64,000 nucleotides of DNA. Origin: Sipunculus nudus. Lineage: Eukaryota; Annelida; Sipuncula; Golfingiida; Sipunculidae. Made by a program: the position numbers and the translations under genes. The stretch spans positions 1-64,000 of the forward strand of contig CM049318.1 of the NCBI GenBank assembly GCA_026874595.1, read 5' to 3'. Shown in pieces: positions 15,766 through 61,542 of the stretch. The number at the start of each line of letters is the position of its first letter. The stretch's first letter is position 1. The notes below the pieces were generated by a model. It saw only the letters and a list, made by a program, of their open reading frames with translations, had not been told where the DNA came from and ran no database searches.

Positions 15766-15904
15766 CACGTGACCATTCAAAGAAATGCCTATAATTCTGT
15801 CATTTTTCACGCTACAGACACATGGCTTGCAGCGCCGGATAGCGGCTGACACTCGCAGTCACATTCAGGGGTCGCATTGTCAGTCTCGTCAAATCTCGCG
15901 CCGT

Positions 15905-16020: not shown

Positions 16021-16100
16021 ATACATGTTGGAGGCACAGTCACAACTTTATTGCTTGCCGGAAATCTTCGATTTTCGCAAGCTGGTTGGTCAGTCGCGGA

Positions 16101-16140
16101 TGTCTGTTTGTCTGTTTGTTTGTTTGTTTGTTTGTCTGTC
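16101..16140 (+). repeat. TTTG/TCTG microsatellite in unit B
   Basis: A run of TTTG with TCTG at both ends, about 40 bp. Its length is the same in all later B units, which is unusual for a microsatellite and fits recent amplification or a copied consensus. The first run (14849-14870) is shorter and has different flanking DNA. Macrosatellite A has a shorter version near 1007-1026. Confidence 0.8.
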
Positions 16141-31981: not shown

Positions 31982-32481
31982 NNNNNNNNNNNNNNNNNNN
32001 NNNNNNNNNNNNNNNNNNNNNNNNNNNNNNNNNNNNNNNNNNNNNNNNNNNNNNNNNNNNNNNNNNNNNNNNNNNNNNNNNNNNNNNNNNNNNNNNNNNN
32101 NNNNNNNNNNNNNNNNNNNNNNNNNNNNNNNNNNNNNNNNNNNNNNNNNNNNNNNNNNNNNNNNNNNNNNNNNNNNNNNNNNNNNNNNNNNNNNNNNNNN
32201 NNNNNNNNNNNNNNNNNNNNNNNNNNNNNNNNNNNNNNNNNNNNNNNNNNNNNNNNNNNNNNNNNNNNNNNNNNNNNNNNNNNNNNNNNNNNNNNNNNNN
32301 NNNNNNNNNNNNNNNNNNNNNNNNNNNNNNNNNNNNNNNNNNNNNNNNNNNNNNNNNNNNNNNNNNNNNNNNNNNNNNNNNNNNNNNNNNNNNNNNNNNN
32401 NNNNNNNNNNNNNNNNNNNNNNNNNNNNNNNNNNNNNNNNNNNNNNNNNNNNNNNNNNNNNNNNNNNNNNNNNNNNNNNNN
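31982..32481. other. Assembly gap of exactly 500 N
   Basis: 500 undetermined bases, the conventional fixed placeholder used by scaffolding programs, so the true distance is unknown. It lies inside a macrosatellite B unit on the left and satellite C on the right, two unrelated repeats. The join rests on scaffolding, not on sequence. Confidence 0.97.
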
Positions 32482-35400
32482 TGATATTTTACCAAGCAGC
32501 GTGTTTTGGCCTACTGGTCTGATATGCGGAGTTTCAGTTGATTCTGCAATGTTGACTCTAACAGTTTCTTTTCGGCAGAATGAATGTATAATATGCGTAT
32601 TATCAGGTGTATATACGAAGGCCGAATTTCGATCTCATATTTTACCAAGCAGCTTGTTTTGGCCTACTGGCCTGATATGCGAGGTTTCGGTTGATTCTGT
32701 AATTTTGACAAGAACAGCTCTTTTCGGACGCATTGATGTATAATATGCATATTAACAGGTGTATATACGAAGTTTGAATTTCGTTCTCATATTTTACCAA
32801 GCAGCGTGTTTTGGCCTACTGGCCTGATATGTAAGGAGTTTCACTTGATTCTGCAATGTTGACCCGAACAGCTCTTTTCGCCCGCACTGATGTATTATAT
32901 GCGTATAAACAGAGGTATATATGAGGTTCGAATTTCCATCTCATATTTTACCAAGCAGCGTGTTTTGGCCTACTGGTCTGATATGCGGAGTTTTAGTTGA
33001 TTCTGCCATGTTGACACGAACAGCTCTTTTCAGCCGCATTGATGGATAACATGCGTATAAACAGGTGTATATACGAAGTTCGAATTTCGATCTCATATTT
33101 TACCAAGCAGCGTGTTTTGCCATGCTGACCTGATATCCGGAGTATCAGTTGATTCAGCAATGTTGACCCGAACAGCTCTTTTCAGCCGCATTCATGTATA
33201 ATATGCGTATAAACAGGTGTATATTCGAAATTCGCATTTCGATCTCATATTTTCCCAAGCAGCTTGTTTAAGCCTACTGGTTTGATATTCGGAGTTTCAG
33301 CTGATTCTGCAATGTTGACCCGAAGATCTCTTTTCGGCTGCATTGCTGTATAATATGCGTATAAACAGGTGTATATACTAAGTTTAATTTTCCATCTCAT
33401 ATTTTACCAAGCAGCTTGTTTTGGCCTACTGGCCTGATATGCGGAGTTTCAGTTGATTCTGCAATTTAGACCCCAACAGCTCTTTTCGGCAACAAGAATA
33501 TATAATTTGCGTATAAAAAAGGTGTATATACAAAGTTCGAATTTCGATCTCATATTTTTTCAAGCAGCGTGTTTTGGTCTTCTGGCCTGATATGCGGAGT
33601 TTTAGTTGATTCTGCCATGTTGACCCGAACATCTCTTTTCGGCAGAATGAATGTATAATATGCGTATGAAAAGGTGTATATACGAAGGCCGAATTTCGAC
33701 CTCATATTTTACCAAGCAGCTTGTTTTGGCCTACTGGCCTGATATGCGGAGTTTCAGTTGATTCTGCAATTCTGACAAGAACAGTTCTTTTCGGCAACAT
33801 GAATGTATAATATACATATAAACAGGTGTCTATACGAAGTTTGAATTTCGTTCTCATATTTTACCAAGCAGCGTGTTTTGGCCTACTGGCCTGATATGTA
33901 AGGAGTTTCACTTGATTCTGCAATGTTGACCCGAACAGCTCTTTTAGCCCGCACTAATGTGTTATATGCGTATAAACAGATGTATATACGAGATTCGAAT
34001 TTCCATGTGATATTTTACCAAGCAGCGTGTTTTGGCCTGCTGGTCTGATATGCGGAGTTACAGTTGATTCTGCAATGTTGACTCTAACAGTTCTTTTCGG
34101 CAGAATGAATGTATAATATGCGTATTATCAGGTGTATATACGAAGGACGAATTTCGATCTCATATTTTACCAAGCAGCTTGTTTTGGCCTACTGGCCTGA
34201 TATGCGAGGTTTCGGTTGATTCTGCAATTTTGACAAGAACAGCTCTTTTCGGATGCATTGATGTATAATATGCATATAAACAGGTGTATATACGAAGTTT
34301 GAATTTCGTTCTCATATTTTACCAAGCAGCGTGTTTTGGCCTACTGGCCTGATATGTAAGGAGTTACACTTGATTCTGCAATGTTGACCCGAACAGCTCT
34401 TTTCGCCCGCACTGATGTATTATATGCTTATAAACAGAGGTATATATGAGGTTCGAATTTCCATCTCATATTTTACCAAGCAGCGTGTTTTGGCCTACTG
34501 GTCTGATATGCGGAGTTTTAGTTGATTCTGCCATGTTGACACGAACAGCTCTTTTCGGCCGCATTGATGGATAACATGCGTATAAACAGGTGTATATACG
34601 AAGTTCGAATTTCGATCTCATATTTTACCAAGCAGCTTGTTTTGCCATGCTGACCTGATATCCGGAGTATCAGTTGATTCAGCAATGTTGACCCGAACAG
34701 CTCTTTTCAGCCGCATTCATGTATAATATGCGTATAAACAGGTGTATATTCGAAATTCGCATTTCGATCTCATATTTTCGCAAGCAGCTTGTTTAAGCCT
34801 TCTGGTTTGATATTCGGAGTTTCAGCTGATTCTGCAATGTTGACCCGAAGATCTCTTTTCGGCTGCATTGCTGTATAATATGCGTATAAACAGGTGTATA
34901 TACTAAGTTTAATTTTCCATCTCATATTTTACCAAGCAGCTTGTTTTGGCCTACTGGCCTGATATGCGGAGTTTCAGTTGATTCTGCAATTTAGACCCCT
35001 ACAGCTCTTTTCGGCAACAAGAATGTATAATTTGCGTATAAAAAAGGTGTATATACAAAGTTCGAATTTCGATCTCATATTTTTCCAAGCAGCGTGTTTT
35101 GGTCTTCTGGCCTGATATGCGGAGTTTCAGTTGATTCTGCCATGTTGACCCGAACATCTCTTTTCGGCAGAATGAATGTATAATATGCGTATGAAAAGGT
35201 GTATATACGAAGGCCGAATTTCGACCTCATATTTTACCAAGCAGCTTGTTTTGGCCTACTGGCCTGATATGCGGAGTTTCAGTTGATTCTGCAATTGTGA
35301 CAAGAACAGCTCTTTTCGACAACATGAATGTATAATATACATATAAACAGGTGTCTATACGAAGTTTGAATTTCGTTCTCATATTTTACCAAGCAGCGTG

Positions 35401-35775
35401 TTTTGGCCTACTGGCCTGATATGTAAGGAGTTTCACTCGATTCTGCAATGTTGACCCGAACAGCTCTTTTAGCCCGCACTAATGTGTTATATGCGTATAA
35501 ACAGATGTATATACGAGATTCGAATTTCCATGTGATATTTTACCAAGCAGCGTGTTTTGGCCTACTGGTCTGATATGCGGAGTTACAGTTGATTCTGCAA
35601 TGTTGACTCTAACAGTTCTTTTCGGCAGAATGAATGTATAATATGCGTATTATCAGGTGTATATACGAAGGACGAATTTCGATCTCATATTTTACCAAGC
35701 AGCTTGTTTTGGCCTACTGGCCTGATATGCGAGGTTTCGGTTGATTCTGCAATTTTGACCCGAACAGCTCTTTTC
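32482..35775 (-). repeat. Left arm of the telomere-cored palindrome (satellite C, inverted)
   Basis: This arm is the reverse complement of 36402-39694. Matching points sum to 72177 along the arm, for example 35775 with 36402 and 33426 with 38751. One extra T at about 32565 shifts the outermost part by one. I found no substitution at the dozen diagnostic positions checked, including rare variants such as CCTGCTGG (34036) and TAGCCCGCACTAATG (33947). The arm is cut by the gap, so its true length is unknown. Confidence 0.93.
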
Positions 35776-35809
35776 AACCCTAACCCTAACCCTAACCCTA
35801 ACCCTAACC

Positions 35810-35869
<60 letters not shown>

Positions 35870-36014
35870 CCCTAACCCTAACCCTAACCCTAACCCTAAC
35901 CCTAACCCTAACCCTAACCCTAACCCTAACCCTAACCCTAACCCTAACCCTAACCCTAACCCTAACCCTAACCTAACCCTAACCCTAACCCTAACCCTAA
36001 CCCTAACCCTAACC

Positions 36015-36055
<41 letters not shown>

Positions 36056-36254
36056 CCCTAACCCTAACCTAACCTAACCCTAACCTAACCCTAACCTAAC
36101 CCTAACCTAACCTAACCCTCACCTAACCCTAACCCTAACCTAACCCTAACCCTAACCCTAACCCTAACCCTAACCCTAACCTAACCCTAACCCTAACCCT
36201 AACCCTAACCCTAACCTAACCCTAACCCTAACCCTAACCCTAACCTAACCCTAA
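35776..36254 (-). repeat. Telomeric repeat tract, (CCCTAA)n on the + strand
   Basis: About 479 bp, close to 80 repeats, with the G-rich TTAGGG strand on the minus strand. A few seven-base CCCTAAA units occur (about 35827, 35844 and 36035). Five-base CCTAA units and one CCTCA cluster at the right end (36064-36250). CCCTAA reading left to right is the orientation of a left chromosome end whose interior lies to the right. Confidence 0.97.
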
Positions 36255-36295
36255 CACCTTTTTTATACGCAAATTATACATTCTTGTTGCCGAAA
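36255..36295 (+). repeat. 41-bp satellite C fragment between two telomeric tracts
   Basis: CACCTTTTTTATACGCAAAT through GCCGAAA matches the satellite C monomer variant at 37130-37170. It is bounded by CCCTAA repeats on the left and TTAGGG repeats on the right. Confidence 0.9.
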
Positions 36296-36331
36296 GGTTA
36301 GGGTTAGGGTTAGGGTTAGGGTTAGGGTTAG
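36296..36331 (+). repeat. Short TTAGGG tract (36 bp, six repeats) on the + strand
   Basis: GGTTAGGG then repeats to GGTTAG, exactly 36 bp without a variant. It sits between satellite C sequence ending GCCGAAA and satellite C sequence starting AAAATATGAGATCG. In the intact higher-order repeat those two points (about 37172 and 37397) are about 225 bp apart, so the tract replaces roughly one and a half monomers. Its orientation is opposite to the 479-bp tract. Confidence 0.95.
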
Positions 36332-36401
36332 AAAATATGAGATCGAAATGCGAATTTCGAATATACACCTGTTTATACGCATATTATACATGAATGCGGC
36401 T
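36332..36401 (+). repeat. Satellite C between the short TTAGGG tract and the right arm
   Basis: About 70 bp (AAAATATGAGATCGAAATGC to GCGGCT) matching the variant at 37399-37468. It has no counterpart on the left side of the palindrome, where telomeric DNA abuts the arm directly. Confidence 0.85.
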
Positions 36402-36644
36402 GAAAAGAGCTGTTCGGGTCAAAATTGCAGAATCAACCGAAACCTCGCATATCAGGCCAGTAGGCCAAAACAAGCTGCTTGGTAAAATATGAGATCGAAA
36501 TTCGTCCTTCGTATATACACCTGATAATACGCATATTATACATTCATTCTGCCGAAAAGAACTGTTAGAGTCAACATTGCAGAATCAACTGTAACTCCGC
36601 ATATCAGACCAGTAGGCCAAAACACGCTGCTTGGTAAAATATCA

Positions 36645-38169
36645 CATGGAAATTCGAATCTCGTATATACATCTGTTTATACGCATATAACACATTAGTG
36701 CGGGCTAAAAGAGCTGTTCGGGTCAACATTGCAGAATCGAGTGAAACTCCTTACATATCAGGCCAGTAGGCCAAAACACGCTGCTTGGTAAAATATGAGA
36801 ACGAAATTCAAACTTCGTATAGACACCTGTTTATATGTATATTATACATTCATGTTGTCGAAAAGAGCTGTTCTTGTCACAATTGCAGAATCAACTGAAA
36901 CTCCGCATATCAGGCCAGTAGGCCAAAACAAGCTGCTTGGTAAAATATGAGGTCGAAATTCGGCCTTCGTATATACACCTTTTCATACGCATATTATACA
37001 TTCATTCTGCCGAAAAGAGATGTTCGGGTCAACATGGCAGAATCAACTGAAACTCCGCATATCAGGCCAGAAGACCAAAACACGCTGCTTGGAAAAATAT
37101 GAGATCGAAATTCGAACTTTGTATATACACCTTTTTTATACGCAAATTATACATTCTTGTTGCCGAAAAGAGCTGTAGGGGTCTAAATTGCAGAATCAAC
37201 TGAAACTCCGCATATCAGGCCAGTAGGCCAAAACAAGCTGCTTGGTAAAATATGAGATGGAAAATTAAACTTAGTATATACACCTGTTTATACGCATATT
37301 ATACAGCAATGCAGCCGAAAAGAGATCTTCGGGTCAACATTGCAGAATCAGCTGAAACTCCGAATATCAAACCAGAAGGCTTAAACAAGCTGCTTGCGAA
37401 AATATGAGATCGAAATGCGAATTTCGAATATACACCTGTTTATACGCATATTATACATGAATGCGGCTGAAAAGAGCTGTTCGGGTCAACATTGCTGAAT
37501 CAACTGATACTCCGGATATCAGGTCAGCATGGCAAAACAAGCTGCTTGGTAAAATATGAGATCGAAATTCGAACTTCGTATATACACCTGTTTATACGCA
37601 TGTTATCCATCAATGCGGCCGAAAAGAGCTGTTCGTGTCAACATGGCAGAATCAACTAAAACTCCGCATATCAGACCAGTAGGCCAAAACACGCTGCTTG
37701 GTAAAATATGAGATGGAAATTCGAACCTCATATATACCTCTGTTTATAAGCATATAATACATCAGTGCGGGCGAAAAGAGCTGTTCGGGTCAACATTGCA
37801 GAATCAAGTGTAACTCCTTACATATCAGGCCAGTAGGCCAAAACACGCTGCTTGGTAAAATATGAGAACGAAATTCAAACTTCGTATATACACCTGTTTA
37901 TATGCATATTATACATCAATGCATCCGAAAAGAGCTGTTCTTGTCAAAATTGCAGAATCAACCGAAACCTCGCATATCAGGCCAGTAGGCCAAAACAAGC
38001 TGCTTGGTAAAATATGAGATCGAAATTCGTCCTTCGTATATACACCTGATAATACGCATATTATACATTCATTCTGCCGAAAAGAACTGTTAGAGTCAAC
38101 ATTGCAGAATCAACTGTAACTCCGCATATCAGACCAGCAGGCCAAAACACGCTGCTTGGTAAAATATCA
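36645..38169 (+). repeat. 1525-bp higher-order repeat of satellite C, copy 1
   Basis: Ten ~152-bp monomers form a 1525-bp block. The mirrored copies on the left arm are at 34008-35532 and 32482-34007. Diagnostic variants (TTTTTTATACGCAAATTATA; GAAAATTAAACTTAGTATAT; GATACTCCGGATATCAGGTC) recur at this period. Confidence 0.88.
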
Positions 38170-39694
38170 CATGGAAATTCGAATCTCGTATATACATCTG
38201 TTTATACGCATATAACACATTAGTGCGGGCTAAAAGAGCTGTTCGGGTCAACATTGCAGAATCAAGTGAAACTCCTTACATATCAGGCCAGTAGGCCAAA
38301 ACACGCTGCTTGGTAAAATATGAGAACGAAATTCAAACTTCGTATAGACACCTGTTTATATGTATATTATACATTCATGTTGCCGAAAAGAACTGTTCTT
38401 GTCAGAATTGCAGAATCAACTGAAACTCCGCATATCAGGCCAGTAGGCCAAAACAAGCTGCTTGGTAAAATATGAGGTCGAAATTCGGCCTTCGTATATA
38501 CACCTTTTCATACGCATATTATACATTCATTCTGCCGAAAAGAGATGTTCGGGTCAACATGGCAGAATCAACTAAAACTCCGCATATCAGGCCAGAAGAC
38601 CAAAACACGCTGCTTGAAAAAATATGAGATCGAAATTCGAACTTTGTATATACACCTTTTTTATACGCAAATTATATATTCTTGTTGCCGAAAAGAGCTG
38701 TTGGGGTCTAAATTGCAGAATCAACTGAAACTCCGCATATCAGGCCAGTAGGCCAAAACAAGCTGCTTGGTAAAATATGAGATGGAAAATTAAACTTAGT
38801 ATATACACCTGTTTATACGCATATTATACAGCAATGCAGCCGAAAAGAGATCTTCGGGTCAACATTGCAGAATCAGCTGAAACTCCGAATATCAAACCAG
38901 TAGGCTTAAACAAGCTGCTTGGGAAAATATGAGATCGAAATGCGAATTTCGAATATACACCTGTTTATACGCATATTATACATGAATGCGGCTGAAAAGA
39001 GCTGTTCGGGTCAACATTGCTGAATCAACTGATACTCCGGATATCAGGTCAGCATGGCAAAACACGCTGCTTGGTAAAATATGAGATCGAAATTCGAACT
39101 TCGTATATACACCTGTTTATACGCATGTTATCCATCAATGCGGCTGAAAAGAGCTGTTCGTGTCAACATGGCAGAATCAACTAAAACTCCGCATATCAGA
39201 CCAGTAGGCCAAAACACGCTGCTTGGTAAAATATGAGATGGAAATTCGAACCTCATATATACCTCTGTTTATACGCATATAATACATCAGTGCGGGCGAA
39301 AAGAGCTGTTCGGGTCAACATTGCAGAATCAAGTGAAACTCCTTACATATCAGGCCAGTAGGCCAAAACACGCTGCTTGGTAAAATATGAGAACGAAATT
39401 CAAACTTCGTATATACACCTGTTAATATGCATATTATACATCAATGCGTCCGAAAAGAGCTGTTCTTGTCAAAATTACAGAATCAACCGAAACCTCGCAT
39501 ATCAGGCCAGTAGGCCAAAACAAGCTGCTTGGTAAAATATGAGATCGAAATTCGGCCTTCGTATATACACCTGATAATACGCATATTATACATTCATTCT
39601 GCCGAAAAGAACTGTTAGAGTCAACATTGCAGAATCAACTGAAACTCCGCATATCAGACCAGTAGGCCAAAACACGCTGCTTGGTAAAATATCA
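38170..39694 (+). repeat. 1525-bp higher-order repeat of satellite C, copy 2
   Basis: Same ten-monomer order as copy 1 with a few substitutions, for example AACTAAAACTCC at 38570 where copy 1 has AACTGAAACTCC. Marker frames at 38545 and 40070 are 1525 bp apart. Confidence 0.87.
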
Positions 39695-41600
39695 CATGGA
39701 AATTCGAATCTCGTATATACATCTGTTTATACGCATATAACACATAAGTGCGGGCGAAAAGAGCTGTTCGGGTCAACATTGCAGAATCAAGTGAAACTCC
39801 TTACATATCAGGCCAGTAGGCCAAAACATGCTGCTTGGTAAAATATGAGAACGAAATTCAAACTTCGTATAGACACCTGTTTATATGCATATTATACATT
39901 CATGTTGCCGAAAAGAGCTGTTCTTGTCAGAATTGCAGAATCAACTGAAACTCCGCATATCAGGCCAGTAGGCCAAAACAAGCTGCTTGGTAAAATATGA
40001 GATCGAAATTCGGCCTTCGTATATACACCTTTTCATACGCATATTATACATTCATTCTGCCGAAAAGAGATGTTCGGGTCAACATGGCAGAATCATCTGA
40101 AACTCCGCATATCAGGCCAGAAGACCAAAACACGCTGCTTGGAAAAATATGAGATCGAAATTCGAACTTTGTATATACACCTTTTTTATACGCAAATTAT
40201 ACATTCTTGTTGCCGAAAAGAGCTGTTGGCGTCTAAATTGCAGAATCAACTGAAACTCCGCATATCAGGCCAGTAGGCCAAAACAAGCTGCTTGGTAAAA
40301 TATGAGATGGAAAATTAAACTTAGTATATACACCTGTTTATACGCATATTATACAGCAATGCAGCCGAAAAGAGATCTTCGGGTCAACATTGCAGAATCA
40401 GCTGAAACTCCGAATATCAAACCAGTAGGCTTAAACAAGCTGCTTGGGAAAATATGAGATCGAAATGCGAATTTCGAATATACACCTGTTTATACGCATA
40501 TTATACATGAATGCGGCTGAAAAGAGCTGTTCGGGTCAACATTGCTGAATCAACTGATACTCCGGATATCAGGTCAGCATGGCAAAACAAGGTGCTTGGT
40601 AAAATATGAGATCGAAATTCGAACTTCGTATATACACCTGTTTATACGCATATAATACATCAGTGCGGGCGAAAAGAGCTGTTCGGGTCAACATTGCAGA
40701 ATCAAGTGAAACTCCTTACATATCAGGCCAGTAGGCCAAAACACGCTGCTTGGTAAAATATGAGAACGAAATTCAAACTTCGTATATACACATGTTTATA
40801 TGCATTAATATACATCAATGCGTCCGAAAAGAGCTGTTCTTGTCAACTTGGCAGAATCAACCGAAACCTTGCATATCAGGCCAGTAGGCCAAAACAAGCT
40901 GCTTGGTAAAATATGAGATCGAAATTCGGCCTTCGTATATACACCTGATAATACGCATATTATACATTCATTCTGCCGAAAAGAGATGTTCGGGTCAACA
41001 TGGCAGAATCAACTGAAACTCCGCATATCAGGCCAGAAGACCAAAACACGCTGCTTGGAAAAATATGAGATCGAAATTCGAACTTTGTATATACACCTTT
41101 TTTATACGCAAATTATACATTCTTGTTGCCGAAAAGAGCTGTTGGGGTCTAAATTGCAGAATCAACTGAAACTCCGCATATCAGGAGAGTAGGCCAAAAC
41201 AAGCTGCTTGGTAAAATATGAGATGGAAAATTAAACTTAGTATATACACCTGTTTATACGCATATTATACAGCAATGCAGCCGAAAAGAGATCTTCGGGT
41301 CAACATTGCAGAATCAGCTGAAACTCCGAATATCAAACCAGTAGACTTAAACAAGCTGCTTGGGAAAATATGAGATCGAAATGCGAATTTCGAATATACA
41401 CCTGTTTATACGCATATTATACATGAATGCGGCTAAAAAGAGCTGTTCGGGTCAACATTGCTGAATCAACTGATACTCCGGATATCAGGTCAGCATGGCA
41501 AAACAAGCTGCTTGGTAAAATATGAGATGGAAATTCGAACCTCGTATATACCTCTGTTTATACGCATATAATACATCAGTGCGGGCGAAAAGAGCTGTTC
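39695..41600 (+). repeat. Shortened higher-order repeats following the 1525-bp copies
   Basis: The ten-monomer order continues, but monomers are missing. At about 40636 the sequence jumps from one monomer type to another, and the next marker (40986) follows the previous one (40070) by 916 bp, six monomers instead of ten. This is the expected product of unequal exchange in register with the monomer. Confidence 0.75.
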
Positions 41601-44293
41601 GGGTCAACATTGCAGAATCAAGTGAAACTCCTTACATATCAGGCCAGTAGGCCAAAACACGCTGCTTGGTAAAATATGAGAACGAAATTCAAACTTCGTA
41701 TATACACCTGTTTATATGCATATTATACATCAATGCGTCCGAAAAGAGCTGTTCTTGTCAACATGGCAGAATCAACTAAAACTTCACATATCAGACCAGT
41801 AGGTCAAAACCCGCTGCTTGGCAAATATGAGATGGAAATTCGGCCTTCGTATATACACCTTTTCATACGCATATTATATATTCATGCTGCCGAAAAGAGC
41901 TGTTCGGATCAACATTGCAGAATCAACTGGAACTCCACATATCAGGCCAGTAGGCCAAAACAGGCTGCTTGGGAAAATATGAGATCGAAATTCGAACTTC
42001 GTATATACACCTGTTTATACGCATGTTATCCATCAATGCGGCCGAAAAGAGCTGTTCTAGTCAACATGGCAGAATCAACTAAAACTTCGCATATCAGACC
42101 AGTAGGTCAAAACCCGCTGCTTGGCAAATATGAGATGGAAATTCGATCCTCGTATATACGTCTGTTTATACGCATATAATACATCAGTGCGTGCGAAAAG
42201 AGCTGTTCGGGTCAACATTGCAGAATCAACTGAAACTCCTTGCATATCAGGCCAGTAGGCCAAAACACGCTGCTTGGTAAAATATGAGATCGAAATTCGA
42301 ATTTCGTATGTACACCTGTTTATTCGCATGTTATACATCAATGCGTCCGAAAAGAGCTGCTCTTGTGAAAATTGCAGAATCAACCGAAACTCCGCATATC
42401 AGGCCAGAAGACTAAAACACACTTTTTGGAAAAATATGAGATCGAAATTCGAACTTCGTATATACACCTGTTTATTCGCATATTATTACAGCAATGCAGC
42501 CGAAAAGAGCTGTTCGGGTCAACATTGCAGAATCAGCTGAAACTCCGAATATCAGACCAGTAGGCTTAAACAAGCTGCTTGGGAAAATATGAGATGGAAA
42601 TTAGAACTTCGTATAAACAACTGTTAATACGCATATTATACATCAATGCGTCCGAAAAGAGCTGTTCTTGTCAAAATTGCAGAATCAACCGAACTCCGCA
42701 TATCAGGCCAGTAGGCCAAAACACGCTGCTTGGTTAAATATGAGATCGAAATGCGAACTTCTTATATACACCTGTTCATACGCATAATATAATTCAATGC
42801 AGCCGAAAAGAACTGTTAGAGTCAACATTGCAGAATCAACTGAAACTCCGCATATCAGGCATTAGGCCAAAACACGCTGCTTGGAAAAATATGAAATCGA
42901 AATTCGAATTTCGAATATACACCTGTTTATACGCATATTATACATGAATGCGGCTGAAAAGAGCTGTTCGGGTCAACATTGCTGAATCAACTGAAACTCC
43001 TGATATCAGGTCAGTATGGCAAAACAAGCTGCTTGGTAAAATATGAGATCGAAATTCGAACTTCGTATATACACCTGTTTATACGCATGTTATCCATCAA
43101 TGGGGCCGAAAAGAGCTGTTCGTGTCAACATGGCAGAATCAACTAAAACTCCGCATATCAGATCAGAAGGCCAAAACACGCTGCTTGGTAAAATATCAGA
43201 TGGAAATTCGAACCTCGTATATACACCTGTTTATACGCATATAATACATCAGTGCGGGCGAAAAGAGCTGTTCTGGTCAACATTGCAGAATCAAGTGAAA
43301 CTCCTTACATATCAGGCCAGTAGGCCAAAACACGCTGCTTGGTAAAATATGAGAACGAAATTCAAACTTCGTATATACACCTGTTTGTATGCATATTATA
43401 CATCAATGCTTCCGAAAAGAGATGTTCTTGTCAAAATTGCAGAATCAACCGAAACCTCGCATATCAGGCCAGTAGGCCAAAACAAGCTGCTTGGTAAAAT
43501 ATGAGATCGAAATTCGGCCTTTGTATATACACCTTTTCATACGCATATTATACATTCATGCTGCCGAAAAGAGCTGTTCGGATCAACATTGCAGAATCAA
43601 CTGGAACTCCGCATATCAGGCCACTAGGCCAAAACAGGCTGCTTGGGAAAATATGAGATCGAAATTCGAACTTCGTATATACACCTGTTTATACGCATGT
43701 TATCCATCAATGCGGCCGAAAAGAGCTGTTCTTGTCAACATGGCAGAATCAACTAAAACTTCGCATATCAGACCAGTAGGTCAAAACCCGCTGCTTGGCA
43801 AATATGAGATGGAAATTCGATCCTCGTAAATACGTCTGTTTATACGCATATAATACATCAGTGCGGGCGAAAAGAGCTGTTCGGGTCAACATTGCAGAAT
43901 CAACTGAAACTCCTTGCATATCAGGCCAGTAGGCCAAAACACGCTGCTTGGTAAAATATGAGATCGAAATTCGAACTTCGTATGTACACCTGTTTATTCG
44001 CATATTATACATCAATGCGTCCGAAAAGAGCTGCTCTTGTGAAAATTGCAGAATCAACCGAAACTCCGCATATCAGGCCAGTAGGGCAAAACAAGCTGCT
44101 TGGTAAAATATGAGATCGAAATTCGAACTTCGTATATACACCTGATAATATGCATATTATACATCAATGCAGCCGAAAAGGGCTGTTCGAGTCAACATTG
44201 CAGAATCAGCTGAAACTCCGAATATCAGACCAGTAGGCTTAAACAAGCTGCTTGGTGAAATATGAGATCAAAATTCGAACTTCGTATATACAA
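41601..44293 (+). repeat. Satellite C, mixed monomer order
   Basis: Continuous ~152-bp monomers in the + direction with no simple higher-order period visible. Part of it, from about 43130, is duplicated 15.29 kb to the right. The longest frame (167 aa from 41676) spans three monomers and shows the same peptide twice, as expected of repeat DNA. Confidence 0.8.
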
Positions 44294-45965
44294 CTGTTTA
44301 TACGCATATTATACATCAATGCGTCCGAAAAGAGCTGTTCTTGTCAAAATTGCAGAATCAACAAAAACTCTGCATATCAGGCCATTTGGCCAAAACACGC
44401 TGCTTGGTCAAATATGAGATCGAAATGCGAACTTCTTATATACACCTGTTCATACAAATATAATACATCAATCCGGCCGAAAAGAGCTGTTGGGGTCTAA
44501 ATTGCAGAATCAACTGAAACTCCGCATATCAGGCCAGTAGGCCAAAACAAGCTGCTTGGTAAAATATGAGATGGAAAATTAAACTTCGTATACACATCTG
44601 TTTTTACGCATATTATTCATAAATGCGACCGATGAGAGCTGTTCAGGTCTAAATTGCAGAATCAACTGAAACTAGGCATATCAGGCCAGTAGGCAAAAAC
44701 AGGCTGCTTGGTAAAATATGAGATGGAAAATTAAACTTCGTATATACACCTGTTTATACGCATATTATACAGCAATGCAGCCGAAAAAGACTGTTCGGGT
44801 CAACATTGCAGAATCAGCTGAAACTCCGAATATCAGAACAGTAGGCTTAAACAAGCTGCTTGGGAAAATATGAGATGGAAATTACAACTTCCTTTATACA
44901 ACTGTTAATACGCATATTATACATCAATGCGTCCGAATAGAGCTGTTCTTGTCAAAATTGCAGAATCAACCGAAACTCCGCATATCAGGCAAGTAGGCCA
45001 AAACACGCTGCTTGGTCAAATATGAGATCGAAATCCGAACTTCTTATATACACCTGTTCATACAAATATAATACATCAATGCGGCCGAAAAGAGCTGTTC
45101 TGGTCAAAATTGCAGAATCAACTGAAACTCCAGATATCAGGCCAGTAGGTCAAAACACGCTGCTTGGTAAAATATGAGATGGAAAATTAAACTTCGTATA
45201 TACACCTGTTTATACGCATATTATACAGCAATGCAGCCGAAAAAGGCTGTTCGGGTCAACATTGCAGAATCAGCTGAAACTCCGAATATCAGACCAGTAG
45301 GCTTAAAAAAGCTGCTTGGGAAAATATGAGATGGAAATTAGAACTTCCTTTATACAACTGTTCATACGCATATTATACATCAATGCGTCCGAATAGAGAT
45401 CTTCGGGTCAAAATTGCAGAATCAACCGAAACTCCGCATATCAGGCCAGTAGGCCAAAACACGCTGCTTGGTCAAATAAGAGATCGAAATCCGAACTTCT
45501 TATATACACCTGTTCATACAAATATAATACATCAATGCGGCCGAAAAGAGCTGTTCTGGTCAAAATTGCAGAATCAACTGAAACTCCGCATATCAGGCCA
45601 GTAGGTCAAAACACGCTGCTTGGTAAAATATGAGATCGAAATTCGAATTTCGAATATACACCTGTTTATACGCATATTATACATGAATGCGGCTGAAAAG
45701 AGCTATTAGGGTCAACATTGCTGAATCAACTGAAACTCCGGATATCAGGTCAGTATGGCAAAACAAGCTGCTTGGTAAAATATGAGATCGAAATTCGAAC
45801 TTCGTATATACACCTGTTTATACGCATGTTATCCATCAATGCGGCCGAAAAGAGCTGTTCGTGTCAACATGGCAGAATCAACTAAAACTCCGCATATCAG
45901 ACCAGTAGGCCAAAACACGCTGCTTGGTAAAATATGAGATGGAAATTCGAACCTCGTATATACAT
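44294..45965 (+). repeat. 1672-bp direct duplication in satellite C, copy 1
   Basis: Eleven monomers. Marker frames at 44252 and 45924, and at 45326 and 46998, are all 1672 bp apart. Copies differ by only a few bases, for example GCGACCGATGAG (44626) against GCGGCCGATGAG (46298). Confidence 0.87.
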
Positions 45966-47637
45966 CTGTTTATACGCATATTATACATCAATGCGTCCGA
46001 AAAGAGCTGTTCTTGTCAAAATTGCAGAATGAACAAAAACTCTGCATATCAGGCCATTTGGCCAAAACACGCTGCTTGGTCAAATATGAGATCGAAATGC
46101 GAACTTCTTATATACACCTGTTCATACAAATATAATACATCAATCCGGCCGAAAAGAGCTGTTGGGGTCTAAATTGCAGAATCAACTGAAACTCCGCATA
46201 TCAGGCCAGTAGGCCAAAACAAGCTGCTTGGTAAAATATGAGATGGAAAATTAAACTTCGTATACACATCTGTTTTTACGCATATTATTCATAAATGCGG
46301 CCGATGAGAGCTGTTCAGGTCTAAATTGCAGAATCAACTGAAACTAGGCATATCAGGCCAGTAGGCAAAAACAGGCTGCTTGGTAAAATATGAGATGGAA
46401 AATTAAACTTCGTATATACACCTGTTTATACGCATATTATACAGCAATGCAGCCGAAAAAGACTGTTCGGGTCAACATTGCAGAATCAGCTGAAACTCCG
46501 AATATCAGAACAGTAGGCTTAAACAAGCTGCTTGGGAAAATATGAGATGGAAATTACAACTTCCTTTATACAACTGTTAATACGCATATTATACATCAAT
46601 GCGTCCGAATAGAGCTGTTCTTGTCAAAATTGCAGAATCAACCGAAACTCCGCATATCAGGCAAGTAGGCCAAAACACGCTGCTTGGTCAAATATGAGAT
46701 CGAAATCCGAACTTCTTATATACACCTGTTCATACAAATATAATACATCAATGCGGCCGAAAAGAGCTGTTCTGGTCAAAATTGCAGAATCAACTGAAAC
46801 TCCGCATATCAGGCCAGTAGGTCAAAACACGCTGCTTGGTAAAATATGAGATGGAAAATTAAACTTCGTATATACACCTGTTTATACGCAAATTATACAG
46901 CAATGCAGCCGAAAAAGGCTGTTCGGGTCAACATTGAAGAATCAGCTGAATCTCCGAATATCAGACCAGTAGGCTTAAAAAAGCTGCTTGGGAAAATATG
47001 AGATGGAAATTAGAACTTCCTTTATACAACTGTTCATACGCATATTATACATCAATGCGTCCGAATAGAGATCTTCGGGTCAAAATTGCAGAATCAACCG
47101 AAACTCCGCATATCAGGCCAGTAGGCCAAAACACGCTGCTTGGTCAAATAAGAGATCGAAATCCGAACTTCTTATATACACCTGTTCATACAAATATAAT
47201 ACATCAATGCGGCCGAAAAGAGCTGTTCTGGTCAAAATTGCAGAATCAACTGAAACTCCGCATATCAGGCCAGTAGGTCAAAACACGCTGCTTGGTAAAA
47301 TATGAGATCGAAATTCGAATTTCGAATATACACCTGTTTATACGCATATTATACATGAATGCGGCTGAAAAGAGCTATTGGGGTCAACATTGCTGAATCA
47401 ACTGAAACTCCGGATATCAGGTCAGTATGGCAAAACAAGCTGCTTGGTAAAATATGAGATCGAAATTCGAACTTCGTATATACACCTGTTTATACGCATG
47501 TTATCCATCAATGCGGCCGAAAAGAGCTGTTCGTGTCAACATGGCAGAATCAACTAAAACTCCGCATATCAGACCAGTAGGCCAAAACACGCTGCTTGGT
47601 AAAATATGAGATGGAAATTCGAACCTCGTATATACAT
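45966..47637 (+). repeat. 1672-bp direct duplication in satellite C, copy 2
   Basis: Immediately follows copy 1 in tandem. It ends at ACATCTG (47637-47640), the same point at which copy 1 ends at 45965. A rare variant in it, ACATTGAAGAATC near 46932, is reproduced at the right end of the window in inverted form. Confidence 0.87.
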
Positions 47638-47764
47638 CTGTTTATACGCATGTTATCCATTAATGCGGCCGAAAAGAGCTGTTCATGTCAACATATCAGA
47701 ATCAACTAAAACTTCGCATATCAGACCAGTAGGTCAAAACCCGCTGCTTGGTAAAATATGAGAT

Positions 47765-50700
47765 GGAAATTCGAACCTCGTATATACATCTGTTTTTACG
47801 CATATAATACATCAGTGCGGGCGAAAAGAGCTGTTCTGGTCAACATTGCAGAATCAACTGGAACTCCGCATATCAGGCCACTAGGCCAAAACAGGCTGCT
47901 TGGGAAAATATGAGATCGAAATTCGAACTTCGTATATACACCTGTTTATACGCATGTTATCCATTAATGCGGCCGAAAAGAGCTGTTCATGTCAACATAT
48001 CAGAATCAACTAAAACTTCGCATATCAGACCAGTAGGTCAAAACCCGCTGCTTGGCAAATATGAGATGGAAATTCGATCCTCGTAAATACGTCTGTTTAT
48101 ACGCATATAATACATCAGTGCGGGCGAAAAGAGCTGTTCGGGTCAACATTACAGAATCAACTGAAACTCCTTGCATATCAGGCCAGTAGGCCAAAACACG
48201 CTGCTTGGTAAAATATGAGATCGAAATTCGAACTTCGTATGTACACCTGTTTATTCGCATATTATACATTAATGCGTCCGAAAAGAGCTGATCTTGTGAA
48301 AATTGCAGAATCAACCGAAACTCCGCATATCAGGCCAGTAGGGCAAAACAAGATGCTTGGTAAGATATGAGATCGAAATTCGAACTTCGTATATACACCT
48401 GATAATACGCATATTATACATTCATTCTGCCGAAAAGAGATCTTCGGGTCAACATGGCAGAATCAACTAAAACTCCGCATATCAAGCCACAAGGCCAAAA
48501 CACGCTGCTTGGAAAAAGATGAGATTGAAATTCGAACTTCGTATATACACCTTTTTATACGCATATTATACATTCATGCTGCCGAAAAGAGCTGTTCAGG
48601 TCTAAATTGCAGAATCAACTGAAACTAGGCATATCAGGCCAGTAGGCAAAAACAAGCTGCTTGGTAAAATATGAGATCGAAATTCGAACTTCGTATATAC
48701 ACCTGATAATATGCATATTATACATCAATGCAGCCGAAAAGGGCTGTTCGAGTCAACATTGCAGAATCAGCTGAAACTCCGAATATAAGACCAGTAGGCT
48801 TAAACAAGCTGCTTGGTGAAATATGAGATCAAAATTCGAACTTCGTATATACAACTGTTTATACGCATATTATACATCAATGCGACCGAAAAGAGCTGTT
48901 CTTGTCAAAATTGCAGAATCAACAAAAACTCTGCATATCAGGCCATTTGGCCAAAACACGCTGCTTGGTCAAATATGAGATCGAAATGCGAACTTCTTAT
49001 ATACACCTGTTCATACAAATATAATACATCAATCCGGCCGAAAAGAGCTGTTGGGGTCTAAATTGCAGAATCAACTGAAACTCCGCATATCAGGCCAGTA
49101 GGCCAAAACAAGCTGCTTGGTAAAATATGAGATGGAAAATTAAACTTCGTATACACATCTGTTTTTACGCATATTATTCATAAATGCGGCCGATGAGAGC
49201 TGTTCAGGTCTAAATTGCAGAATCAACTGAAACTAGGCATATCAGGCCAGTAGGCAAAAACAGGCTGCTTGGTAAAATATGAGATGGAAAATTAAACTTC
49301 GTATATACACCTGTTTATACGCATATTATACAGCAATGCAGCCGAAAAAGACTGTTCGGGTCAACATTGCAGAATCAGCTGAAACTCCGAATATCAGAAC
49401 AGTAGGCTTAAACAAGCTGCTTGGGAAAATATGAGATGGAAATTACAACTTCCTTTATACAACTGTTAATACGCATATTATACATCAATGCGTCCGAATA
49501 GAGCTGTTCTTGTCAAAATTGCAGAATCAACCGAAACTCCGCATATCAGGCAAGTAGGCCAAAACACGCTGCTTGGTCAAATATGAGATCGAAATTCGAA
49601 CTTCTTATATACACCTGTTCATACAAATATAATACATCAATGCGGCCGAAAAGAGCTGTTCTGGTCAAAATTGCAGAATCAACTGAAACTCCGCATATCA
49701 GGCCAGTAGGTCAAAACACGCTGCTTGGTAAAATATGAGATCGAAATTCGAATTTCGAATATACACCTGTTTATACGCATATTATACATGAATGCGGCTG
49801 AAAAGAGCTATTGGGGTCAACATTGCTGAATCAACTGAAACTCCGGATATCAAGTCAGTATGGCAAAACAAGCTGCTTGGTAAAATATGAGATCGAAATT
49901 CGAACTTCGTATATACACCTGTTTATACGCATGTTATCCATCAATGCGGCCGAAAAGAGCTGTTCGTGTCAACATGGCAGAATCAACTAAAACTCCGCAT
50001 ATCAGACCAGTAGGCCAAAACACGCTGCTTGGTAAAATATGAGATGGAAATTCGAACCTCGTATATACATCTGTTTATACGCATATAATACATCAGTGCG
50101 GGCGAAAAGAGCTGTTCTGTTCAACATTGCAGAATCAACTGGAACTCCGCATATCAGGCCACTAGGCCAAAACAGGCTGCTTGGGAAAATATGAGATCGA
50201 AATTCGAACTTCGTATATACACCTGTTTATACGCATGTTATCCATTAATGCGGCCGAAAAGAGCTGTTCTTGTCAACATATCAGAATCAACTAAAACTTC
50301 GCATATCAGACCAGTAGGTCAAAACCCGCTGCTTGGCAAATATGAGATGGAAATTCGATCCTCGTAAATACGTCTGTTTATACGCATATAATACATCAGT
50401 GCGGGCGAAAAGAGCTGTTCGGGTCAACATTACAGAATCAACTGAAACTCCTTGCATATCAGGCCAGTAGGCCAAAACACGCTGCTTGGTAAAATATGAG
50501 ATCGAAATTCGAACTTCGTATGTACACCTGTTTATTCGCATATTATACATTAATGCGTCCGAAAAGAGCTGATCTTGTGAAAATTGCAGAATCAACCGAA
50601 ACTCCGCATATCAGGCCAGTAGGGCAAAACAAGCTGCTTGGTAAGATATGAGATCGAAATTCGAGCTTCGTATATACACCTGATAATACGCATATTATAC

Positions 50701-50930
50701 ATTCATTCTGCCGAAAAGAGATCTTCGGGTCAACATGGCAGAATCAACTAAAACTCCGCATATCAAGCCACAAGGCCAAAACACGCTGCTTGGAAAAAGA
50801 TGAGATTGAAATTCGAACTTCGTATATACACCTTTTTATACGCATCTTATACATTCATGCTGCCGAAAAGAGCTGTTCAGGTCTAAATTGCAGAATCAAC
50901 TGAAACTAGGCATATCAGGCCAGTAGGCAA
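47765..50930 (+). repeat. Satellite C with a 2281-bp-offset duplication
   Basis: About 0.9 kb at 47765-48650 recurs at 50046-50930, offset 2281 bp (fifteen monomers), carrying the same unusual variants (GTAAATACGTCTG, AACATTACAGAATC, AGAGCTGATCTTG). The DNA between (48650-50045) repeats blocks of the 1672-bp duplication. Confidence 0.8.
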
Positions 50931-53900
50931 AAACAGGCTGCTTGGTAAAATATGAGATGGAAAATTAAACTTCGTATATACACCTGTTTATACGCATATT
51001 ATACAGCAATGCAGCCGAAAAAGGCTGTTCGGGTCAACATTGCAGAATCAGCTGAAACTCCGAATATCAGACCAGTAGGCTTAAAAAAGCTGCTTGGGAA
51101 AATATGAGATGGAAATTAGAACTTCCTTTATACAAGTGTTCATACGCATATTATACATCAATGCGTCCGAATAGAGATCTTCGGGTCAAAATTGCAGAAT
51201 CAACCGAAACTCCGCATATCAGGCCAGTAGGCCAAAACACGCTGCTTGGTCAAATATGAGATCGAAATCCGAACTTCTTATATACACCTGTTCATACAAA
51301 TATAATACATCAATGCGGCCGAAAAGAGCTGTTCTGGTCAAAATTGCAGAATCAACTGAAACTCCGCATATCAGGCCAGTACGTCAAAACACGCTGCTTG
51401 GTAAAATATGAGATCGAAATTCGAATTTCGAATATACACCTGTTTATACGCATATTATACATGAATACGGATGAAAAGAGCTATTGGGGTCAACATTGCT
51501 GAATCAACTGAAACTCCGGATATCAGGTCAGTATGGCAAAACAAGCTGCTTGGTAAAATATGAGATCGAAATTCGAACTTCGTATATACACCTGTTTATA
51601 CGCATGTTATCCATCAATGCGGCCGAAAAGAGCTGTTCGTGTCAACATGGCAGAATCAACTAAAACTCCGCATATCAGACCAGTAGGCCAAAACACGCTG
51701 CTTGGTAAAATATGAGATGGAAATTCGAACCTCGTATATACACCTGATAATACGCATATTATACATTCATTCTGCCGAAAAGAGATGTTCGGGTCAACAT
51801 GGCAGAATCAACTGAAACTCCGCATATCAGGCCAGAAGACTAAAACACACTGCTTGGAAAAATATGAGATCGAAATTCGAACTTTGTATATACACCTATT
51901 CATACGCATATTATACATAAATGCGTCCGAAAAGAGCTGTTCTTGTCAAAATTGCAGAATCAACCGAATCTCCGCATATCAGGGCAGTAGGCCAAAACAA
52001 GCTGCTTGGTAAAATATTAGATCGAAATTCGGCCTTCTTATATACACCTGTTCATATAAATATAATACATCAATGCGGCCGAAAAGAGCTGTTCTGGTCA
52101 AAATTGCAGAATCAACTGAAACTCCGCATATCAGGCCAGTACGTCAAAACACGCTGCTTGGTAAAATATGAGATCGAAATTCGAATTTCGAATATACACC
52201 TGTTTATACGCATATTATACATGAATGCGGATGAAAAGAGCTATTGGGGTCAACATGGCAGAATCAACTAAAACTCCGCATATCAGATCAGAAGGCCAAA
52301 ACACGCTGCTTGGTAAAATATCAGATGGAAATTCGAACCTCGTATATACACCTGTTTATACGCATATAATACATCAGTGCGGGCGAAAAGAGCTGTTCTG
52401 GTCAACATTGCAGAATCAAGTGAAACTCCTTACATATCAGGCCAGTAGGCCAAAACACGCTGCTTGGTAAAATATGAGAACGAAATTCAAACTTCGTATA
52501 TACACCTGTTTGTATGCATATTATACATCAATGCTTCCGAAAAGAGATGTTCTTGTCAAAATTGCAGAATCAACCGAAACCTCGCATATCAGGCCAGTAG
52601 GCCAAAACAAGCTGCTTGGTAAAATATGAGATCGAAATTCGGCCTTCGTATATACACCTTTTCATACGCATATTATACATTCATGCTGCCGAAAAGAGCT
52701 GTTCGGATCAACATTGCAGAATCAACTGGAACTCCGCATATCAGGCCACTAGGCCAAAACAGGCTGCTTGGGAAAATATGAGATCGAAATTCGAACTTCG
52801 TATATACACCTGTTTATACGCATGTTATCCATCAATGCGGCCGAAAAGAGCTGTTCTTGTCAACATGGCAGAATCAACTAAAACTTCGCATATCAGACCA
52901 GTAGGTCAAAACCCGCTGCTTGGCAAATATGAGATGGAAATTCGATCCTCGTAAATACGTCTGTTTATACGCATATAATACATCAGTGCGGGCGAAAAGA
53001 GCTGTTCGGGTCAACATTGCAGAATCAACTGAAACTCCTTGCATATCAGGCCAGTAGGCCAAAACACGCTGCTTGGTAAAATATGAGATCGAAATTCGAA
53101 CTTGTTTTTGACAAGAACAGCTCTTTTCGGACGCATTGATGTATAATATGCGTATAAACAGTTGTATATACGAAGTTCGAATTTTGATCTCATATTTCAC
53201 GAAGCATATTATACATCAATGCGTCCGAAAAGAGCTGCTCTTGTGAAAATTGCAGAATCAACCGAAACTCCGCATATCAGGCCAGTAGGGCAAAACAAGC
53301 TGCTTGGTAAAATATGAGATCGAAATTCGAACTTCGTATATACACCTGATAATATGCATATTATACATCAATGCAGCCGAAAAGGGCTGTTCGAGTCAAC
53401 ATTGCAGAATCAGCTGAAACTCCGAATATCAGACCAGTAGGCTTAAACAAGCTGCTTGGTGAAATATGAGATCAAAATTCGAACTTCGTATATACAACTG
53501 TTTATACGCATATTATACATCAATGCGTCCGAAAAGAGCTGTTCTTGTCAAAATTGCAGAATCAACAAAAACTCTGCATATCAGGCCATTTGGCCAAAAC
53601 ACGCTGCTTGGTCAAATATGAGATCGAAATGCGAACTTCTTATATACACCTGTTCATACAAATATAATACATCAATCCGGCCGAAAAGAGCTGTTGGGGT
53701 CTAAATTGCAGAATCAACTGAAACTCCGCATATCAGGCCAGTAGGCCAAAACAAGCTGCTTGGTAAAATATGAGATGGAAAATTAAACTTCGTATACACA
53801 TCTGTTTTTACGCATATTATTCATAAATGCGGCCGATGAGAGCTGTTCAGGTCTAAATTGCAGAATCAACTGAAACTAGGCATATCAGGCCAGTAGGCAA

Positions 53901-54240
53901 AAACAGGCTGCTTGGTAAAATATGAGATGGAAAATTAAACTTCGTATATACACCTGTTTATACGCATATTATACAGCAATGCAGCCGAAAAAGACTGTTC
54001 GGGTCAACATTGCAGAATCAGCTGAAACTCCGAATATCAGAACAGTAGGCTTAAACAAGCTGCTTGGGAAAATATGAGATGGAAATTACAACTTCCTTTA
54101 TACAACTGTTAATACGCATATTATACATCAATGCGTCCGAATAGAGCTGTTCTTGTCAAAATTGCAGAATCAACCGAAACTCCGCATATCAGGCAAGTAG
54201 GCCAAAACACGCTGCTTGGTCAAATATGAGATCGAAATCC
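50931..54240 (+). repeat. ~3.35-kb direct duplication in satellite C, copy 1
   Basis: Matches 54357-57580. The offset is 3426 bp up to about 53100 and 3346 bp after it. The step of about 80 is accounted for by a 101-bp inverted insertion at 53104 that replaced 22 bp in this copy. Confidence 0.85.
53104..53204 (-). repeat. 101-bp inverted satellite C insertion making a 40-bp-stem hairpin
   Basis: Here satellite C runs backwards for 101 bp inside a + strand array. Its reverse complement matches 53459-53558 nearby. Compared with the intact paralogue at 56538-56559, 22 bp (CGTATGTACACCTGTTTATTCG) are replaced. The insertion creates an inverted repeat: 53111-53150 pairs with 53205-53244 with one mismatch, around a 54-bp loop. 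The shape is that of a templated insertion by replication template switching. Confidence 0.9.
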
Positions 54241-54356
54241 GAACTTCTTATATACACCTGTTCATACAAATATAATACATCAATGCGGCCGAAAAGAGCT
54301 GTTCTGGTCAAAATTGCAGAATCAACTGAAACTCCGCATATCAGGCCAGTAGGTCA

Positions 54357-57300: not shown

Positions 57301-57580
57301 TGTTTATACGCATATTATACAGCAATGCAGCCGAAAAAGACTGTTCGGGTCAACATTGCAGAATCAGCTGAAACTCCGAATATCAGAACAGTAGGCTTAA
57401 ACAAGCTGCTTGGGAAAATATGAGATGGAAATTACAACTTCCTTTATACAACTGTTAATACGCATATTATACATCAATGCGTCCGAATAGAGCTGTTCTT
57501 GTCAAAATTGCAGAATCAACCGAAACTCCGCATATCAGGCAAGTAGGCCAAAACACGCTGCTTGGTCAAATATGAGATCG
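54357..57580 (+). repeat. ~3.35-kb direct duplication in satellite C, copy 2
   Basis: Partner of 50931-54240. It overlaps the first copy of the 2738-bp tandem duplication, so the duplications are nested and happened in sequence. Confidence 0.83.
54838..57575 (+). repeat. 2738-bp tandem duplication in satellite C, copy 1
   Basis: Eighteen monomers. Marker frames at 55211, 55651, 56299 and 56802 recur 2738 bp downstream at 57949, 58389, 59037 and 59540. The crossover lies within about 57568-57583, where a monomer ending GGTCAAATATGAGATCG joins one continuing AAATTCGAATTTCG. Confidence 0.88.
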
Positions 57581-60313: not shown

Positions 60314-61542
60314 GATCGAAATCCGAACTTCTTATATACACCTGTTCATACAAATATAATACATCAATGCGGCCGAAAAGAGCTGTTCTGGTCAAAATTG
60401 CAGAATCAACTGAAACTCCGCATATCAGGCCAGTAGGTCAAAACACGCTGCTTGGTAAAATATGAGATGGAAAATTAAACTTCGTATATACACCTGTTTA
60501 TACGCATATTATACAGCAATGCAGCCGAAAAAGGCTGTTCGGGTCAACATTGCAGAATCAGCTGAAACTCCGAATATCAGACCAGTAGGCTTAAAAAAGC
60601 TGCTTGGGAAAATATGAGATGGAAATTAGAACTTCCTTTATACAACTGTTCATACGCATATTATACATCAATGCGTCCGAATAGAGATCTTCGGGTCAAA
60701 ATTGCAGAATCAACCGAAACTCCGCATATCAGGCCAGTAGGCCAAAACACGCTGCTTGGTCAAATAAGAGATCGAAATCCGAACTTCTTATATACACCTG
60801 TTCATACAAATATAATACATCAATGCGGCCGAAAAGAGCTGTTCTGGTCAAAATTGCAGAATCAACTGAAACTCCGCATATCAGGCCAGTAGGTCAAAAC
60901 ACGCTGCTTGGTAAAATATGAGATCGAAATTCGAATTTCGAATATACACCTGTTTATACGCATATTATACATGAATGCGGCTGAAAAGAGCTATTAGGGT
61001 CAACATTGCTGAATCAACTGAAACTCCGGATATCAGGTCAGTATGGCAAAACAAGCTGCTTGGTAAAATATGAGATCGAAATTCGAACTTCGTATATACA
61101 CCTGTTTATACGCATGTTATCCATCAATGCGGCCGAAAAGAGCTGTTCGTGTCAACATGGCAGAATCAACTAAAACTCCGCATATCAGACCAGTAGGCCA
61201 AAACACGCTGCTTGGTAAAATATGAGATGGAAATTCGAACCTCGTATATACATCTGTTTATACGCATATTATACATCAATGCGTCCGAAAAGAGCTGTTC
61301 TTGTCAAAATTGCAGAATCAACAAAAACTCTGCATATCAGGCCATTTGGCCAAAACACGCTGCTTGGTCAAATATGAGATCGAAATGCGAACTTCTTATA
61401 TACACCTGTTCATACAAATATAATACATCAATCCGGCCGAAAAGAGCTGTTGGGGTCTAAATTGCAGAATCAACTGAAACTCCGCATATCAGGCCAGTAG
61501 GCCAAAACAAGCTGCTTGGTAAAATATGAGATGGAAAATTAT
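58420..61542 (+). repeat. Satellite C block duplicated from 43130-46254, offset ~15.29 kb
   Basis: Marker frames at 43749, 44252, 45326 and 45924 recur exactly 15288 bp downstream at 59037, 59540, 60614 and 61212. The match stops at 61542, where the array turns over. Confidence 0.83.

What the first reader, a model, noticed from the sequence alone, without database searches (positions are those of the whole stretch)
32482..39694. Nearly perfect 3.3-kb-arm palindrome with telomeric DNA at its centre
Arms 32482-35775 and 36402-39694 are reverse complements, with one one-base indel as the only difference I found, around a 626-bp core of telomeric and satellite sequence. Neighbouring satellite copies in direct orientation differ more than the two arms do. 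The inversion is therefore very young, actively converted, or an artefact such as a fold-back read or a wrong path through an inverted repeat. If real, it records a sister-chromatid or end-joining event at a telomere.
Basis: partly seen in the sequence, partly recalled or inferred. Interest (0 to 1): 0.7.

Follow-up and report, generated by a model that had tools for sequence, protein, structure and literature searches.

The report
Young inverted repeat in subtelomeric satellite
Near one end of a chromosome-sized sequence, a stretch of short repeated DNA is followed by an almost perfect mirror copy of itself across a small block of telomere repeats; the mirror copy stops at a gap in the assembly and resembles other mirrored copies nearby, so it is probably ordinary recent reshuffling of chromosome-end DNA, although a sequencing artefact cannot be ruled out without the reads.

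Summary
The palindrome is in the sequence: 3,293 of 3,293 aligned bases match, plus one T-run indel. The left arm is the first 3,294 bp of a contig, so its length is a lower bound.

Near-identity is normal here: an inverted pair inside the same gap-free stretch is longer (3,942 bp, 3 mismatches), another is exact over 1,906 bp, and direct 1-kb windows reach 100%. The central tract also looks interstitial. At 480 bp with 16 of 81 odd units it resembles three other tracts whose flanks were read, all with non-telomeric DNA on both sides, more than the purer C2 tract. One flank type occurs at 32 tract junctions, all within 0.77 Mb of scaffold ends.

Best reading (0.55): a real, recent inverted duplication in a subtelomeric 152-bp satellite block, joined outside a short telomeric tract by end joining. 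Main rival (0.33): a fold-back or chimeric read kept at a contig end. A wrong path through an inverted repeat is unlikely: the left arm/tract junction occurs once in the genome.

The parts
31982..32481 (.). 500-N gap; a contig starts at 32482
   Evidence: exact run of 500 N; another 500-N run abuts the C2 telomeric tract, so 500 N is used as a gap elsewhere in this assembly
32482..35775 (-). left arm: 152-bp satellite, inverted relative to the main array; first bases of the contig
   Evidence: arms; TRF period 152; gap
35776..36255 (+). (CCCTAA)n tract, 480 bp, 81 units of which 16 non-canonical (3 of 40 in the left half, 13 of 41 in the right half)
36256..36296 (+). satellite fragment between the two telomeric stretches
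36296..36331 (-). (GGTTAG)6, 36 bp, opposite orientation to the main tract; its left junction occurs once in the genome at up to 2 mismatches
36332..36400 (+). satellite not present in the left arm's inner end
36401..39694 (+). right arm: start of the main satellite array
36332..61541 (+). main satellite array, 152-bp monomers
45436..49377 (+). arm of a second inverted pair; partner 61543-65484 in scaffold coordinates; 3 mismatches in 3,942 bp, spacer about 12.2 kb
53104..53203 (-). 100-bp inverted satellite piece inside the main array
59636..61541 (+). arm of a third inverted pair; exact partner 65883-67788 (scaffold) that ends at a TTAGGG tract
61543..64000 (-). inverted satellite block; continues to 67788 beyond the window, then a TTAGGG tract

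Best explanation
A real, recent inverted duplication in a subtelomeric satellite block. Shown: the block 32482-67788 of scaffold C13 is built of 152-bp satellite in both orientations, is bordered by short telomeric tracts at 35776-36255 (with more inverted satellite beyond it) and about 67787-67998, and holds several near-identical multi-kb copies in both orientations. Inferred: a short telomeric tract, once at or near a chromosome end, lost protection and its tip was joined, with about 1 bp of overlap, to a broken copy of the same satellite (sister chromatid, homologue or the same molecule folded back). An end-to-end join of like ends is inverted by geometry, so the joined copy became the left arm. 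The tract then stayed as an interstitial relic in the spacer.
For: Arms 3,293/3,293 with one indel. Other inverted pairs lie inside gap-free sequence (no N in 32482-80000): 3,942 bp with 3 mismatches and 1,906 bp exact. In 32482-67788, exact repeats of 1 kb or more number 5 inverted and 4 direct. The tract matches interstitial tracts: 480 bp, 16/81 odd units, against C5 492 bp 13/82, C15 457 bp 8/78, C13-right 218 bp 5/36; the C2 tract, next to a gap, has 12 of 306 units read (3/13 + 9/293). Non-telomeric sequence outside telomeric tracts is common: 32 junctions of one element S with a tract, all within 766,754 bp of a scaffold end, 28 of 32 with the tract in telomere polarity and S outside. 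Junction overlap 1 bp.
Against: The left arm is seen only as the first 3.3 kb of a contig, where unsupported read ends survive. No reads or depth could be examined. The finding's exact stretch (3,211 bp) is the longest of the block. Its one difference is a homopolymer indel near the contig end, as expected of thin consensus. The left junction occurs once only, so no independent copy supports it. End joining is inferred from one junction with a 1-bp overlap, which chance often gives.
Confidence: 0.55

Rival explanations
1. Fold-back or chimeric-read artefact: a molecule ending in the telomeric tract folded back, or its 3' end was joined to a recessed complementary strand, in the library; the read was kept because it lay at a contig end.
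For: The arm is the contig's first 3,294 bp beside a 500-N gap. No substitution between arms and a single T-run indel 84 bp from the contig end. The G-rich strand of the centre can fold on itself through the reversed (GGTTAG)6 (z -8.8 against 20 shuffles). Inverted-repeat reads were reported at 0.18-7.33% of nanopore reads (PMC13141652, passages) and about 0.55-0.6% in ONT genomic data (PMC12870357, passages).
Against: The two breakpoints lie about 625 bp apart, outside the 200-bp definition of a fold-back read in PMC12870357, and that paper saw virtually none in its PacBio HiFi sample. The sequencing platform here is unknown. Folding through the reversed (GGTTAG)6 would start the copy at 36332, not at the observed 36401. 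Near-identical inverted pairs also occur away from any gap. A real palindrome would also tend to end a contig here, since the left arm gives no unique anchor (inference).
Confidence: 0.33
2. Older inverted repeat kept identical by ongoing gene conversion between the arms.
For: High identity among many copies in the block, direct and inverted, fits homogenisation in general.
Against: No gradient or patch of differences between the arms to show conversion: zero substitutions in 3,293 bp. Nothing here separates conversion from recent origin.
Confidence: 0.07
3. Wrong path through an inverted repeat in the assembly graph.
For: The block is rich in inverted repeats of 1-4 kb.
Against: A wrong path switches inside shared sequence; here the satellite and the tract share 1 bp at the junction, and that junction occurs nowhere else in the assembly at up to 2 mismatches, so at least one read must have carried it.
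Confidence: 0.05

Closest known systems
Interstitial telomeric sequences (PMC7215372 passages; PMC6410037 listing only)
   Same: Short telomeric tracts with other DNA on both sides; break-repair origin with deletions at the site is documented there
   Different: The main tract (480 bp) sits in the spacer of a near-perfect inverted satellite repeat close to a scaffold end
Fold-back inverted duplications with a spacer (PMC3907307 passages incl. abstract; PMC10622511 passages)
   Same: Two inverted arms round an unduplicated spacer
   Different: Spacer about 625 bp against 766-70,466 bp there; 1 bp overlap against 2-8 bp at 13 of its junctions; the spacer here contains a telomeric tract
Sister-chromatid telomere fusions (PMC4864465 and PMC6411840, passages)
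   Same: Head-to-head join of like chromosome ends with asymmetric loss on one side
   Different: 480 bp of telomeric repeats kept at the join; mean overlap there about 3 nt against 1 here; studied in cultured human cells
Fold-back read artefacts (PMC12870357, PMC13141652, passages)
   Same: Near-perfect inverted copies at a read or contig end
   Different: Asymmetric spacer of about 625 bp
Yeast Y' subtelomeric elements with internal telomeric tracts (recalled, from no call)
   Same: Subtelomeric blocks separated by short telomeric tracts in fixed polarity, as element S shows here
   Different: The finding's outer flank is inverted satellite, not the recurring element

Membership tests
Interstitial telomeric sequence | telomeric repeats with non-telomeric sequence on both sides | tested here: met
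   as assembled: satellite on both sides of 35776-36255; depends on the left arm being real
Interstitial telomeric sequence | short and degenerate compared with a terminal tract of the same genome | tested here: inconclusive
   16/81 odd units against 12/306 units read of the C2 tract; one comparator only, and that it is terminal is not shown
Fold-back read artefact (PMC12870357 definition) | the two breakpoints within 200 bp | tested here: not met
   about 625 bp apart
Fold-back read artefact (PMC12870357 definition) | breakpoint near the read's midpoint; lack of independent reads | not testable with these tools
   no reads held
Fold-back inverted duplication | unduplicated spacer between inverted arms | tested here: met
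   about 625-bp spacer
Fold-back inverted duplication | inverted microhomology of 2 bp or more at the junction | tested here: not met
   1 bp; 2-8 bp in 13 junctions of PMC3907307
Sister-chromatid telomere fusion | head-to-head join of like ends with telomeric remnant | tested here: met
   geometry only
Sister-chromatid telomere fusion | partner is the sister chromatid | not testable with these tools
   homologue, sister and same-molecule origin look alike in one assembly

The most novel reading that the evidence does not exclude
On this chromosome end the satellite grows by recurrent inverted copying next to telomeric tracts: at both edges of the 35-kb block the satellite that touches a telomeric tract is an exact or near-exact inverted copy of a segment inside the main array (3,294 bp at the left tract, 1,906 bp at the right tract). 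Former telomeres would act as landing sites to which broken or folded-back ends of the same array are joined again and again.
Probability: 0.15. Interest if true: 0.5.

Novelty: new member of a known kind. Interest (0 to 1): 0.3.

Why it matters
If real, it is a young, readable join between a telomeric tract and an inverted copy of its own subtelomeric satellite, with comparators a few kb away, and could help date and order events at chromosome ends. If an artefact, it marks a faulty contig end, and the telomeric tract inside scaffold C13 marks a scaffold join to re-check. In either case the near-identity of the arms should not be read alone as a sign of something special, because this block is full of near-identical copies in both orientations.

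Tried and rejected
Terminal telomere with DNA 'beyond the tip': my first reading, because the tract faces outward and its odd units crowd on the inner side (3/40 against 13/41; one-sided p 0.016 by 100,000 shuffles). Weakened when C5 and C15, which have other DNA on both sides, showed the same lean (4/41 against 9/41; 2/39 against 6/39), while C13-right did not (3/18 against 2/18). The lean may mean that the tracts are former chromosome ends.

Snap-back priming at the reversed (GGTTAG)6: plausible fold but it predicts a copy from 36332; the copy starts at 36401.

Wrong graph path: see rivals. Rfam: 0 matches at the gathering threshold in the window. ORFs of at least 150 aa in 1-31981: 4, of which 2 lie mostly across the N run and 2 within the 1,269-bp unit array; none was searched against a protein library. 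The satellite pattern was absent from viral contigs and genome contigs, which hold viral and prokaryote sequence. Organism not identified: 17 chromosome-size scaffolds; the Littorina saxatilis paper (PMC11050657, outline and abstract) also has 17 but gives 1.35 Gb and N50 67 Mb, and I draw no identification. Paper search for a 152-bp mollusc satellite: 0 papers. Papers PMC10942973 and PMC10320752 (passages) show 500 N used as a join length. I did not look at other papers' full texts.

Limits: the genome search lists only top or first places, so satellite and tract surveys are partial. The satellite/TTAGGG junction at 67.8 kb could not be searched genome-wide.

Full report
Observation. The arms 32482-35775 and 36402-39694 are reverse complements with 3,293 identities, no mismatch and one gap; BLAST adds one base on each side of the centre, 35776 and 36401. 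The gap is one T in a T run about 84 bp from the left end. Between the arms lie a (CCCTAA)n tract at 35776-36255, a satellite piece, a reversed (GGTTAG)6 at 36296-36331 and about 70 bp of satellite. The left arm is thus the first 3,294 bp of a contig and its length is a lower bound. The same gap length abuts the C2 tract.

Where it lies. The window is the first 64 kb of C13, a 70.9-Mb scaffold of a 1.43-Gb genome with 17 chromosome-size scaffolds. From 32482 there is no N up to 80000. Order: inverted satellite 32482-35775; CCCTAA tract; satellite 36332-61541; inverted satellite 61543-67788; TTAGGG tract to about 67998; a subtelomeric element, S, from 68004. S is 99.9% identical to the left end of C5 over 10 kb and 99.7% to C15 over 8.4 kb.

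Near-identity is ordinary in this block. Adjacent monomers average 85%, but the block is a mosaic of recent copies. Of 123 1-kb windows (32482-64000), 114 had a partner hit of at least 950 bp; 42 had a direct partner at >=99.5% and 16 at >=99.9%; 32 and 29 had inverted ones. In 32482-67788, exact repeats of 1 kb or more number 4 direct and 5 inverted, repeats of 500 bp or more 26 and 23 (direct pairs starting in the tract were left out). Two other inverted pairs lie inside the gap-free stretch: 45436-49377 / 61543-65484 with 3 mismatches in 3,942 bp and 59636-61541 / 65883-67788 exact over 1,906 bp. The finding keeps the longest exact stretch, 3,211 bp. A 100-bp inverted piece sits at 53104-53203.

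The tract looks interstitial. It is 480 bp with 16 of 81 odd units. Three other tracts whose two flanks I read are alike: C5 492 bp, 13/82; C15 457 bp, 8/78; C13-right 218 bp, 5/36. The C2 tract, which starts at a 500-N gap and whose inner flank I did not see, has 12 odd units of 306 read. The S/tract junction occurs 32 times on 13 scaffolds at up to 2 mismatches, at most 766,754 bp from a scaffold end; in 28 of 32 the tract has the polarity of a terminal telomere and S lies outside it; the four exceptions are two on C13 and two on C11. So DNA outside telomeric tracts is common here. Odd units lean to the inner half at C13-left, C5 and C15 but not C13-right, which may mean that the tracts were once ends (inference).

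How it may have arisen. The join of left arm and tract has a 1-bp overlap and occurs once in the genome; the reversed (GGTTAG)6 junction also occurs once. A wrong graph path would need a shared stretch, so at least one read carried the join (inference). The left arm matches this locus best by far: the best other place found is C13:496-504 kb at 85-87% (only top candidates scored). A join between a tract tip and a broken copy of the same satellite, on a sister, a homologue or the same molecule, gives an inverted copy by geometry. Fold-back duplications in PMC3907307 have spacers of 766-70,466 bp and 2-8 bp overlaps at 13 junctions (passages); sister-chromatid fusions in PMC4864465 average about 3 nt (passages). 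The present 625 bp and 1 bp fall a little outside both.

Artefact. The contig-end position, the absence of substitutions and the one T-run indel near the contig end fit a fold-back read. Against it: the breakpoints are about 625 bp apart, where PMC12870357 sets 200 bp (passages); and near-identical inversions occur away from gaps. A real palindrome would also stop an assembler here. Polishing with reads of the other arm could have erased differences, so identity gives no age (inference). Reads are needed.

Verdict. Real inverted duplication in subtelomeric satellite 0.55; fold-back or chimeric read 0.33; conversion of an older repeat 0.07; wrong path 0.05. Interest 0.3: a tidy example of a known kind, with an assembly caution.

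Noticed in passing
C13:68004-79079 (outside the window); C5:1-11069; C15:1-8386: A subtelomeric element S shared at 99.7-99.9% between chromosome ends, with one fixed end against a telomeric tract; 32 such junctions on 13 scaffolds, all within 0.77 Mb of scaffold ends, 28 of 32 in one polarity. Only low-complexity ORFs of 150 aa or more were listed in L005 and of 120 aa or more in L024.
   Followed up: partly
window 1-12030 and 14849-31981: Two tandem arrays with units of about 1,277 bp (copies about 99.5% alike) and 1,269 bp (about 99.9% alike); related units fill or touch the left ends of C2, C7 and C9 and the small contigs C19 and C21. Their contig is placed outside the telomeric tract, so its position deserves a check.
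   Followed up: partly
C13:67987 and C13:148104 (outside the window): S/tract junctions of opposite polarity to 28 of 32; the contig starting at 32482 may be placed the wrong way round, or is really inverted.
   Followed up: no
C2:404079 onward (L031, L032): Much purer CCCTAA tract that starts right after a 500-N gap, about 404 kb inside the scaffold.
   Followed up: no
window 36296-36331: Perfect reversed (GGTTAG)6 that seems to replace about 80 bp of a satellite monomer, like a repair insertion of telomeric repeats.
   Followed up: partly
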